Assembly: GCF_024807655.1 (NCBI RefSeq)
Contig: NZ_JANUCR010000001.1
Coordinates: 478,991-542,990, forward strand
Direction: 5' to 3'
DNA length: 64,000 nucleotides
Origin: Methanococcus voltae
GTDB taxonomy: Archaea > AGJL01 > Methanococci > Methanococcales > Methanococcaceae
The position numbers were made by a program, and so were the translations under genes. This document shows, piece after piece, positions 18,044-20,431 of this stretch (positions within the stretch are counted from its first letter, which is position 1; the number at the start of each line of letters is the position of its first letter). The notes under the pieces are model-generated. The model ran no database searches, was not told where the DNA came from, and saw only the letters and a program-made list of their open reading frames with translations.

Positions 18044-18742
18044 TTACCAAACTTTTAAATCAATTCCTTCAATTAACACCCTATTGCCTTCAGCCTCTAC
18101 AATTACACCACTGTGGACTTTCTGCATCATACAGTGCGTGGGGATAAATCTTACAGTTTTTCCAATTTCCGGCATCTTACCTTTTGAAACTACCCCTTCA
18201 AAAGCCACTACAATAGCCACCCCTACATTAATGTAATCTTTTTTCTCACCCGTTATTCTATGACAAGGTCCTTCTACGTGTATCACGTGCATACCGTGGG
18301 AAATTTCTATTATTTTGGCAAAATGGGGTAATGGACAACCCAATGGCCTATATTGGATATAATCATTAATTTTTAAATCCTTAGCAAGGGGGCTTGTAAT
18401 TAATAACGTTTCTCTACAAGAATGTTCGTTTTCAAGAGGGTCCAGTAAGAAATCTGCATTATATCCATCAATTAGACCAATAAATTCTGCATTACCAGAT
18501 TTATCAATATTTTTAGTAGATTTACAAACTATTATCTTATTTTCAGTTAATAAGTTATTTAATTCATCAAAATTTAGTTTAAAATCCTCTTTTAAAAGAA
18601 AAGGACATTTTCTAATATCTTCACCACATAATATGCTCTCAGCAAATAAATCACATCTTTTAAAACCACAAGCCCCACAATTATACTTGGGCAATAACTC
18701 ATTAATTTTAGACTCCAACGTTTCCCTATCCAAATTAGTCAT
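18044..18742 (-). CDS. Fe-S domain protein, last gene of the ABC-GTPase-FeS cluster
   Basis: The 232-residue product begins with a 4Fe-4S module of the kind in corrinoid Fe-S proteins and RnfB: C22, C25, C30 and C46 in CGACGFKRC...ESILCGEDIRKCPF. The remainder is an uncharacterised beta-rich part with PLGCPLPHFAKIIEISHGMHVIHVEGPCHRITG and a late HCMMQKVHSGVIVEAEGNRV. It lies 48 bp behind the metallo-GTPase gene, so it is probably co-transcribed. The set suggests metal-centre assembly or repair, but the function is unknown. ATG after GGTGAAAAA. Confidence 0.8.
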   Translation of the reverse strand: MTNLDRETLESKINELLPKYNCGACGFKRCDLFAESILCGEDIRKCPFLLKEDFKLNFDELNNLLTENKIIVCKSTKNIDKSGNAEFIGLIDGYNADFLLDPLENEHSCRETLLITSPLAKDLKINDYIQYRPLGCPLPHFAKIIEISHGMHVIHVEGPCHRITGEKKDYINVGVAIVVAFEGVVSKGKMPEIGKTVRFIPTHCMMQKVHSGVIVEAEGNRVLIEGIDLKVW

Positions 18743-18790
18743 TTTTTCACCAATAATAAAGATATTAAATTTTAATCTTAAATTTTAAGT

Positions 18791-19495
18791 TTATTCTCCC
18801 ACATACTTCGTAAATCCATCAATTCTCCTTAAAACTCCCCTGTGATACTTTTTAGCGATTCTTGTTTCACCTACGCATAATGTACATACTGAAAGTGGTG
18901 CATTGTGTCTTAAAAGTTCATTTTCTAAGTCAATTATCTCCTTAGCTTCAGTTATCTCCTCAGCAACTTCTGCACAGCCTTGTCCACTTAATCCGTTTAC
19001 ATCGTATATCGTACAATTAGGGTTCATTTCAAGTACACGCTCTCTAAAAACCTCTCTTTCAGCTTGCGAAATTATATCACCCTTTGTAATCGCTACAACG
19101 TCAGCACTTGTTAAAAAAGGTCCAACTTTCCGAGGCGTATTTGGGCCCGAAGTAGCATCGATTACACAAACACCTAAACTATTTTTTGTATAAGGTGCAC
19201 AACGATGGCATAAACCTGCTGTTTCAATAATTAAAGTATCAGTATTCTGCTCTTTAGCCCATTCTACCATTTCTTCAATATTATATATGGCAAAATGGTC
19301 TGGACACATATCTTTACTAAGACCAATTAATGTTGGTACGCCTAATTTACCATACCGTACATCATCATCCGTATATAAACAGTCTATTTTAATAACTGCG
19401 GTTTTTTTACCTTTTTTTTGCAATTGTTTGATGGTATGTGTCATTACAGATGTTTTTCCAGCTCCTGGCGTACCTGCTACAATAACTACTTTCAT
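18791..19495 (-). CDS. HypB/UreG/CobW-like metallo-GTPase
   Basis: A 234-residue P-loop protein of the SIMIBI class. The Walker A is AGTPGAGKTS (7-16), followed by DCLYTDDDVRYGKLGVPT, then IIETAGLCHRCAPYTKNSLGVCVIDATSG in the place where HypB and UreG bind nickel (ENVGNLVCP), and TKGD as the G4 guanine motif. A second Cys pair (LSVCTLCVGETRIAKKYHRG) near the C-terminus is unusual. Members help insert metals into hydrogenase, urease or cobalamin. ATG 19495 has GGGTGAATTT before it; the TTG at 19507 overlaps that site. It sits between the ABC ATPase and Fe-S genes. Confidence 0.88.
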   Translation of the reverse strand: MKVVIVAGTPGAGKTSVMTHTIKQLQKKGKKTAVIKIDCLYTDDDVRYGKLGVPTLIGLSKDMCPDHFAIYNIEEMVEWAKEQNTDTLIIETAGLCHRCAPYTKNSLGVCVIDATSGPNTPRKVGPFLTSADVVAITKGDIISQAEREVFRERVLEMNPNCTIYDVNGLSGQGCAEVAEEITEAKEIIDLENELLRHNAPLSVCTLCVGETRIAKKYHRGVLRRIDGFTKYVGE

Positions 19496-19642
19496 AAATT
19501 CACCCAATGATTATTTTATAAACATAATAACATTATTAAAATATTATTTACATATTACAAATTTGATAGTTTAAAACTATTTAAAGATAAATTAAATTAA
19601 AATAAAATATTTTATAAAGTATTTTTATGAATTAAATAGCAA

Positions 19643-20431
19643 TTAACAGGTTTTACAGGTATTTTGAATATCCCCCATACTTAATTTTTCCCCATGTCGT
19701 ACTTTTTCACGCATTGAGAGCATCCACCCGTCTAAATCGTTTAATCGTTTTGAAACTTCTTTTTCTTCCTCGGAAGTTTCAATAATTTCAGTCATTGCCC
19801 CGTTTCTCATTACAACCCTTCTATTAGTCATTAATGCAAGAACGGGGTCATGTGTAATTACCATTACAATTTTACCATATCCTGCAAGTAATTCCAAAGC
19901 TTCATGTTTTTTAATTCCTGCATTTTCAATCTCATCAATCAATACTATAGGCGAATCACTTATTACAGCTACATCTGCAACCATTAAGCTTCTTGATTGC
20001 CCCCCACTCAATATTGTAAGATTATAATCCTTTTTAATAGGTTCTCCAGTCAAATTATTGGCAAGTTCTATTACCTTATTAACTAAACCTTCCGAATTTA
20101 TACCCCTACTTTTTGCGTGCATTAATAAGAATTCTTCGACAGTCATATCTGCTAAAAAATTCATATTTTGAGATAATTGTGCAATTCGTCTTTTTCTCGG
20201 GTCTCTCCTCATTTCAGAACTTGGAATCTCGTTATTAATCATTATTTTTCTTCCAGAAACTGTATCTCCTTGAGATAGCTGTTCTATATCACTTATAAGG
20301 TTTGATTTACCACTACCGGTTGGACCAACTACTCCAAAAATCTCGCCTTTTTTTACAATTAATTCCCTGACGTTTTCGTCATTTCCACATTTATCCACGC
20401 CACCGATTATCTTAATTTCCGTAATTTCCAT
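19643..20431 (-). CDS. ABC-type ATPase without a permease partner
   Basis: The 262-residue protein has a full ABC nucleotide-binding domain: Walker A GPTGSGKSN (about 36-44), a Q-loop (AQLSQNMNFLADMTVEEFL), signature LSGGQSR, Walker B SPIVLIDEIE and an H-loop (VITHD). After the domain is an extension ending in CKTC. There is no membrane gene nearby, so it is more likely a soluble ABC ATPase than a transporter. For comparison, the MCR activation factor A2 (AtwA) is a soluble ABC protein of twice this size. GGTGAATTT precedes the ATG. It precedes the GTPase and Fe-S genes. Confidence 0.87.
   Translation of the reverse strand: MEITEIKIIGGVDKCGNDENVRELIVKKGEIFGVVGPTGSGKSNLISDIEQLSQGDTVSGRKIMINNEIPSSEMRRDPRKRRIAQLSQNMNFLADMTVEEFLLMHAKSRGINSEGLVNKVIELANNLTGEPIKKDYNLTILSGGQSRSLMVADVAVISDSPIVLIDEIENAGIKKHEALELLAGYGKIVMVITHDPVLALMTNRRVVMRNGAMTEIIETSEEEKEVSKRLNDLDGWMLSMREKVRHGEKLSMGDIQNTCKTC

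What the first reader, a model, noticed from the sequence alone, without database searches (positions are those of the whole stretch)
18044..20431. ABC ATPase + metallo-GTPase + Fe-S protein cluster next to comA: candidate undescribed metal-centre system
Three consecutive minus-strand genes encode a soluble-looking ABC ATPase with no permease and a CKTC end, a HypB/UreG-like GTPase with two Cys pairs (CHRC, CTLC), and a protein with a CGACGF-type 4Fe-4S domain. Each type alone is known from metalloenzyme maturation (HypB and UreG for nickel, the A2/AtwA ABC protein for MCR activation). The combination, with no hydrogenase or urease gene near and directly behind comA, suggests a methanogen-specific assembly or reactivation machine for a metal cofactor. 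The shared function is inference.
Basis: partly seen in the sequence, partly recalled or inferred. Interest (0 to 1): 0.75.

Follow-up and report, generated by a model that had tools for sequence, protein, structure and literature searches.

The report
Predicted sulfite-supply machine for sulfonate synthesis
Three adjacent genes in many methane-making archaea, and in a few unrelated bacteria, usually sit beside enzymes that build sulfonates from sulfite, and they likely encode an energy-driven iron-sulfur machine that would supply that sulfite, whose source in methane-making archaea is an open question.

Summary
The three genes are real, intact and co-directional behind comA: a single-domain ABC ATPase, a CobW/HypB-type GTPase, and a protein joining a 4Fe-4S domain to a beta domain without a confident fold match. 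They are not a methanogen-only metal-centre system. Of 79 loci examined, 59 hold all three, and all 59 keep the order ABC-GTPase-FeS. In 41 of 52 named complete loci a sulfite-consuming, sulfonate-forming enzyme (ComA or the unrelated cysteate synthase) lies within 500 bp. Seven bacterial genomes carry the trio; all have cysteate synthase and a cysteate-C-fatty-acyltransferase-class enzyme, none has ComE or ComF over cut-off. A published legend already notes the gene set beside coenzyme M genes, role unknown (PMC12068725). What the contexts share is sulfite, whose source is called unclear in print (PMC6286981). I propose sulfite supply. Methanothermococcus thermolithotrophicus, which makes sulfite from sulfate, keeps comA but lacks the trio at that place. 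Against: 14 of 32 ComA-bearing Methanococcales lack the Fe-S gene, and 8 of these 14 also lack ATP sulfurylase. The chemistry is untested.

The parts
18044..18742 (-). Fe-S protein (called COG2000 in PMC12068725): N-terminal CFeSP-like 4Fe-4S domain plus C-terminal beta domain
18047..18481 (-). C-terminal beta domain (residues 88-232) with invariant Cys/His; candidate metal or sulfur site (inferred)
18791..19495 (-). CobW/HypB/UreG-superfamily GTPase with CPDH, CHRC and CTLC motifs
   Evidence: PF02492 61.2 bits; below the HypB cut-off (57.9 vs 121.2) and the UreG cut-off (36.8 vs 204.2); Cys/His conserved in 62 sequences; start site
19643..20431 (-). soluble single-domain ABC ATPase, Walker A, signature, Walker B and H-loop intact, no permease in the unit
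   Evidence: PF00005 56.7 bits; no NCBIfam cut-off reached among the 25 families shown; conserved motifs in 60 sequences
20551..21315 (-). comA, phosphosulfolactate synthase (PEP plus sulfite); first gene of the co-directional run comA-ABC-GTPase-FeS
   Evidence: TIGR03849 318.9 bits, cut-off 280
16686..17939 (+). larC, convergent neighbour (flanking marker, probably not part of the unit)
   Evidence: TIGR00299 136.4 bits (cut-off 90), NF052512 125.2 (cut-off 50); kept in G021 and G033 where the trio is gone from between comA and larC

Best explanation
The three genes form one conserved unit that is usually found beside sulfite-consuming, sulfonate-forming enzymes, and the unit likely makes sulfite available to those enzymes. 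Shown here: linkage, fixed order, the neighbours, and co-occurrence with cysteate synthase in bacteria that lack the archaeal coenzyme M genes ComE and ComF over cut-off. Inferred: (1) the Fe-S protein is the working part, its CFeSP-like 4Fe-4S domain passing electrons to or from a site formed by the invariant Cys/His residues of its C-terminal beta domain; (2) the GTPase loads a metal into that site, as HypB and UreG do for their clients; (3) the ABC ATPase, probably a dimer, drives or gates the reaction by ATP hydrolysis, as A2 may do in MCR activation; (4) the net reaction is oxidation of sulfide or another reduced sulfur compound to sulfite, handed to ComA or cysteate synthase, so that sulfite (harmful to the methane-forming machinery) need not accumulate.
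For: Order ABC-GTPase-FeS on one strand in 59 of 59 loci with all three, out of 79 examined. In 41 of 52 named complete loci cysteate synthase or ComA lies within 500 bp; comDE does so in 14 of 52 and comF (MMP16) in 0 of 52, with comF about 1 kb away on the other strand in 13. ComA and cysteate synthase belong to different families (TIGR03849, TIGR03844) but both use sulfite (PMC4153887 section 10; PMC12713407 passages). In the Clostridiales contig L054 cysteate synthase (437 bits, cut-off 325) follows the trio by 34 bp, then an enzyme whose best solved relative is a cysteate-C-fatty acyltransferase. The 6 trio-bearing Bacteroidota all have cysteate synthase over cut-off, against 5 of the other 295 Bacteroidota sampled, and all have the acyltransferase-class enzyme at 47% identity, 364-375 bits, against at most 272 bits in 11 comparison genomes. 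ComE and ComF over cut-off: 0 of 7 bacteria. The Clostridiales and Bacteroidota copies do not form one clade in the trio tree. G033, taken as M. thermolithotrophicus from an MvhG identical to 5odc_E over 298 residues and the only full-length AprA-like hit among 36 genomes, keeps comA and larC 272 bp apart with no trace of the trio in the 16 kb stretch; this organism makes sulfite from sulfate (PMC10322725 abstract). No trio protein reaches a named NCBIfam family among the hits shown.
Against: 14 of 32 ComA-bearing genomes of the window's order lack the FeS gene, so the unit is not strictly required for coenzyme M synthesis. ATP sulfurylase as an alternative sulfite route is found in 6 of these 14 and in 2 of 18 FeS-gene carriers: a weak trend (Fisher p 0.096, related genomes); the other 8 are unexplained. 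Genome-wide only the FeS gene was searched in these 36; ABC and GTPase elsewhere were not. In the four trio genomes G001, G002, G004 and G007 the trio is not next to comA, and in three of them (L192-L194) a CFeSP-like gene lies about 5-12 kb away (label by reading). In several ANME-2-type loci the FeS gene stands alone. In Bacteroidota cysteate synthase is elsewhere in the genome. The 6 Bacteroidota form one clade, so they may be one event. The 500-bp count rests on single-linkage clusters of which only representatives were checked by profile. No call tests an activity, a metal or sulfite itself. ABC and GTPase energy use is unusual for a simple oxidase.
Confidence: 0.45

Rival explanations
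1. The trio matures or activates ComF/MMP16, the Fe-S sulfurtransferase of the last coenzyme M step.
For: comF lies about 1 kb from the trio in 13 of 52 complete loci; MMP16 carries a ferredoxin domain and is the main coenzyme M synthase in M. acetivorans (PMC12068725 abstract and passages).
Against: 7 of 7 trio-bearing bacteria lack ComF and ComE over cut-off. comF is never within 500 bp. M. thermolithotrophicus keeps comA but lacks the trio beside it; its ComF was not searched.
Confidence: 0.12
2. The trio keeps sulfite under control (binding, channelling or removal) where sulfonate enzymes need it, rather than making it.
For: Same neighbours as the best explanation; sulfite damages the methane-generating machinery (PMC10322725 passage).
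Against: A dedicated sulfite reductase, Fsr, already detoxifies sulfite in some methanogens (PMC10322725). Two nucleotide hydrolases for binding alone seem costly.
Confidence: 0.13
3. The trio is a nickel or cobalt delivery and reactivation device for MCR, hydrogenase or a corrinoid protein.
For: GTPase of the HypB/UreG superfamily; Fe-S domain like that of CFeSP; larC, hypE and hypD in the window; a CFeSP-like gene about 5-12 kb from the trio in L192-L194.
Against: Present in bacteria without ComE and ComF over cut-off; FeS gene absent from 18 of 36 genomes of the order, which as methanogens need MCR (MCR itself not searched); among the recurrent neighbour clusters whose representatives I read, none is a nickel or corrinoid enzyme.
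Confidence: 0.08
4. The ABC protein energises an unlinked or secondary permease that imports a sulfur oxyanion or sulfonate.
For: A source database names relatives a lipoprotein-export ATPase. A PHO4-family permease (PF01384 in L097) sits next to the FeS gene in L097, and the same cluster does so in 4 Labilibaculum-group loci.
Against: No multi-membrane-segment ORF recurs within 3 kb in the archaeal loci except one in three Methanosarcinaceae. The ABC permease in L034 has its own ATPase beside it. PHO4 carriers do not use an ABC ATPase (recalled). An importer does not need a GTPase and an Fe-S protein.
Confidence: 0.08

Closest known systems
ATPase + Ni-binding GTPase + COG2000 Fe-S genes of Chadwick et al. 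2025 (PMC12068725, Fig 2 legend)
   Same: Same kinds of genes in the same coenzyme M loci; almost certainly the same set
   Different: The legend says only that they co-localise and that the role is unknown; bacterial cases, the sulfite-step pattern and the absence in M. thermolithotrophicus are not in the sections and passages that I saw
AtwA/A2 of the MCR activation complex (PMC12176620 passages)
   Same: Permease-free ABC ATPase working with an Fe-S redox complex in methanogens
   Different: A2 has two ABC domains and 59.5 kDa; this one has a single ABC domain and 262 aa; different partners
HypB and UreG metallochaperone GTPases
   Same: PF02492 superfamily, CPDH motif like the UreG CPH (recalled)
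   Different: Scores far below both equivalog cut-offs; CHRC and CTLC pairs
CFeSP large subunit (AcsC/CdhE) 4Fe-4S domain
   Different: A different C-terminal beta domain in place of the corrinoid-binding part
Dsr-LP/alSir siroheme enzymes, earlier candidates for coenzyme M sulfite (PMC3448663, PMC6286981 passages)
   Same: Proposed role: oxidise sulfide to sulfite for coenzyme M
   Different: Siroheme proteins of other families; PMC3448663 notes methanogens without Dsr-LP or Fsr

Membership tests
ABC transporter | a transmembrane domain in the protein or a linked ABC permease gene | tested here: not met
   no membrane family hit; no recurrent multi-membrane-segment ORF within 3 kb in archaeal loci except one in three Methanosarcinaceae
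ABC transporter | intact ABC nucleotide-binding domain | tested here: met
   PF00005 56.7 bits; motifs conserved in 60 sequences
AtwA / component A2 | two ABC domains in one about 59.5 kDa protein | tested here: not met
   one PF00005 stretch, 262 aa; A2 description from PMC12176620 passages
HypB (TIGR00073) | score over the equivalog cut-off | tested here: not met
   57.9 vs 121.2 bits
UreG (TIGR00101) | score over the equivalog cut-off | tested here: not met
   36.8 vs 204.2 bits
CobW/HypB/UreG superfamily (PF02492) | score over the gathering cut-off | tested here: met
   61.2 vs 20.7 bits
CobW/HypB/UreG superfamily (PF02492) | GTP-dependent metal delivery | not testable with these tools
   needs purified protein
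PF04060 Fe-S domain | four spaced Cys, score over cut-off | tested here: met
   41.5 vs 23 bits; C22 C25 C30 C46 invariant in 48 sequences
Known sulfite-forming reductases (AprA-type, PAPS reductase) | a trio protein matches such a family | tested here: not met
   no such NCBIfam or Pfam hit for the three proteins at E 0.01 (NCBIfam list cut at 25 of 145 families for the ABC protein)
COG2000 set of PMC12068725 | formal COG assignment | not testable with these tools
   no COG library; identity inferred from description and locus

The most novel reading that the evidence does not exclude
A new kind of enzyme system: an ATP- and GTP-driven iron-sulfur machine that makes sulfite from reduced sulfur without oxygen, siroheme or sulfate activation, serving as the sulfite source for coenzyme M in many methanogens and for sulfonolipids in a few bacteria that acquired it.
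Probability: 0.3. Interest if true: 0.87.

Novelty: categorically new. Interest (0 to 1): 0.7.

Why it matters
Coenzyme M is needed for biological methane formation, and its sulfonate group comes from sulfite. Papers state that the in situ source of sulfite is unclear and that the candidate siroheme enzymes are missing from some methanogens (PMC6286981, PMC3448663 passages). If the trio supplies sulfite, that open question becomes testable with gene deletions in a laboratory methanogen, and three unnamed protein families gain a function. Finding the same unit with cysteate-based sulfonolipid-type genes in bacteria suggests that the role is about sulfonates rather than methane itself.

Tried and rejected

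Papers seen: PMC12068725 abstract, section list, passages, sections 6 and 12; PMC4153887 passages and section 10; PMC3087415 passages and section 9; PMC12176620, PMC12713407, PMC10322725 (with its abstract), PMC3448663, PMC8351635, PMC6286981, PMC12138975 passages only; others only in search listings. Recalled, from no call: that PDB 5ODC is from M. thermolithotrophicus, the UreG CPH motif, the SDR gene of L054 as a capnine-type step, PHO4 carriers and sulfate.

Full report

Linkage. One scan of the collection of 84,980 species genomes gave 72 loci for the Fe-S protein (the scan uses two peptide patterns, so it misses divergent relatives). Adding seven stretches from the window's order, 59 of 79 loci hold all three genes, and 59 of 59 have them on one strand in the order ABC-GTPase-FeS. 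The other 20 are contig ends, partial matches, or loci in which the Fe-S gene stands without the other two, as in ANME-2-type contigs L036, L041, L057, L064 and L103. In a script count of ORFs with four or more hydrophobic segments within 3 kb of 52 complete trios, the recurrent ones are three clusters in the Bacteroidota and one in three Methanosarcinaceae loci; seven more loci have a single such ORF. In L034 one of these is an ABC permease with its own ATPase.

Neighbours. Of the 52 named loci with a complete trio, 41 have cysteate synthase or ComA within 500 bp, 14 have comDE within 500 bp, and none has comF (MMP16) within 500 bp; in 13, comF is about 1 kb away on the other strand. Class I methanogen loci have comA-ABC-GTPase-FeS. 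Methanosarcinales, Methanotrichaceae and Methanomassiliicoccaceae loci have cysteate synthase-ABC-GTPase-FeS, in 14 loci followed by comDE. Family names were checked by profile on representatives: TIGR03844 (644 bits), TIGR03845, TIGR03846, TIGR03287 and TIGR03849. The 11 loci without such a neighbour are six Bacteroidota, four ANME-2/Methanosarcinales contigs (two of them with coenzyme M genes 2-4.4 kb away) and one Methanopyri contig. Many loci are close relatives, so these are not independent counts.

Prior art. The legend of Figure 2 in Chadwick et al. 2025 (PMC12068725, section 6 read) says that genes for an ATPase, a Ni-binding GTPase and a COG2000 Fe-S protein are often co-localised with coenzyme M biosynthesis, role unknown. 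That is almost certainly this trio, so the coenzyme M linkage is not new.

Bacteria. The trio also lies in four Labilibaculum genomes, one Marinifilaceae and one Bacteroidales genome, and one Clostridiales genome. A tree of the three concatenated proteins (60 rows) needs at least two changes between archaea and bacteria: the six Bacteroidota form one clade, and the Clostridiales copy groups with Methanobacteriaceae. I read this as two gains; one gain and one return is not excluded, and the bacterial branches are long. In the Clostridiales contig L054, which also carries zinc-uptake-like and two-component-like genes (labels by reading), cysteate synthase (437 bits, cut-off 325) follows the Fe-S gene by 34 bp. 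Next comes an enzyme whose best solved relative is a cysteate-C-fatty acyltransferase (377 bits against 251 for serine palmitoyltransferase), then an SDR enzyme: a sulfonolipid-type set.

Bacteria, controls. Cysteate synthase is over cut-off in 15 of 17 trio or FeS-gene genomes searched, including all 7 bacteria; the two misses are a Methanopyri genome (103 bits; its ComA was not searched) and one with a half gene at a contig end (312 bits). In a sample of 296 Bacteroidota, 6 have it, one of them the Labilibaculum centre, so 5 of 295 others; only the centre has a full-length Fe-S protein (1 of 296). Six of six against 5 of 295 gives Fisher p 5e-10; taking the Labilibaculum group and L097 as two lineages, 5e-4; as they are sisters in the trio tree, one event is possible and these values then overstate. 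The acyltransferase-class enzyme is present at 47% identity and 364-375 bits in these 6, against at most 272 bits in 5 Bacteroidota with cysteate synthase but no Fe-S gene and in 6 other Bacteroidota. The Labilibaculum enzyme matches the solved cysteate-C-fatty acyltransferase at 555 bits and an enzyme named only AONS-like at 593, against 231 for serine palmitoyltransferase. ComE and ComF are over cut-off in 0 of 7 of these bacteria. In the archaea searched alongside, ComE is over cut-off in 4 of 5, with one shorter hit below it, and ComF in 5 of 5.

What the contexts share. The comABC route joins PEP and sulfite (PMC4153887 section 10); cysteate synthase adds sulfite after phosphate elimination from phosphoserine (PMC12713407 passage). 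The two enzymes belong to different families and feed different products, coenzyme M or, in L054, probably sulfonolipid. The common need is sulfite. Where methanogens get it is open in print: the 2012 paper PMC3448663 suggests Dsr-LP but notes that certain methanogens carry neither Dsr-LP nor Fsr; [quoted passage not shown]

Losses. Among 36 genomes of the window's order (Methanococcales, by the names), 18 have the Fe-S gene (16 unbroken, 2 in pieces in draft assemblies); this search was for the Fe-S gene only. All 18 have ComA. Of 32 with ComA, 14 lack the Fe-S gene; the 4 genomes without ComA also lack it (all drafts; Fisher p 0.10). In G033 and G021, comA and larC remain neighbours with the trio gone from between them. 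G021 keeps fossils in place: 27 residues of the ABC start and pieces of the Fe-S gene; G033 has no trace in 16 kb. I take G033 as M. thermolithotrophicus: its MvhG equals PDB 5odc_E over 298 residues (organism of that entry recalled), and it is the only genome of 36 with a full-length AprA-like protein (391 bits, below that family's cut-off of 642). This organism makes sulfite from sulfate by an AprAB-like PAPS reductase (PMC10322725). That fits a supply role. The wider test is weak: ATP sulfurylase is in 6 of 14 ComA genomes without the Fe-S gene and in 2 of 18 with it (p 0.096), which leaves 8 losses, G021 among them, unexplained. In the four trio-bearing genomes G001, G002, G004 and G007 the trio is not next to comA; in three of these stretches a CFeSP-like gene lies about 5-12 kb off, which favours a corrinoid reading slightly.

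Mechanism. I commit to supply of sulfite. The Fe-S protein would be the redox part, the GTPase would load a metal into its Cys/His site, and the ABC ATPase would drive or gate the reaction, in the manner of A2 in the MCR activation complex (PMC12176620 passages). The architecture and neighbours are shown; every chemical step is inferred. I give 0.45 to this explanation and 0.3 to the stronger claim that the trio itself oxidises reduced sulfur to sulfite.

Verdict. It lies outside every named system that I could test it against; the parts belong to known superfamilies.

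Noticed in passing
L097:11413-13126: A second ABC-GTPase pair (48-49% identical to the trio's) without the Fe-S protein beside it, next to a cupin gene and a protein with DUF1858 plus SBP_bac_6; the ABC-GTPase pair may be a module that works with different partners.
   Followed up: partly
L097:2641-4293: Hybrid-cluster protein (hydroxylamine reductase, 867 bits) upstream of a two-component-like pair that precedes the bacterial trio.
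   Followed up: no
L097:8662-9687; L089-L091 and L094: A PHO4-family permease gene (profile checked in L097 only) lies next to the bacterial trio; members of this family can carry sulfate (recalled).
   Followed up: no
L198:8664-9048 (G021): Fossils of the trio in place between comA and larC: start of the ABC gene and broken pieces of the Fe-S gene.
   Followed up: partly
window 13140-14551: arfB and methanogenesis marker 9 (TIGR03277, 183.7 bits); similar ORFs lie near the trio in L192-L194, where comA is elsewhere (likeness by reading).
   Followed up: no
window 14635-15345: 236-aa ORF with no NCBIfam or Pfam match at E 0.01; a similar-looking ORF lies near comA and larC in L199.
   Followed up: no
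L036, L041, L052, L057, L103: Fe-S protein without adjacent ABC or GTPase in ANME-2-type contigs, downstream of a conserved polyprenyl-synthase-like gene (label recalled).
   Followed up: no
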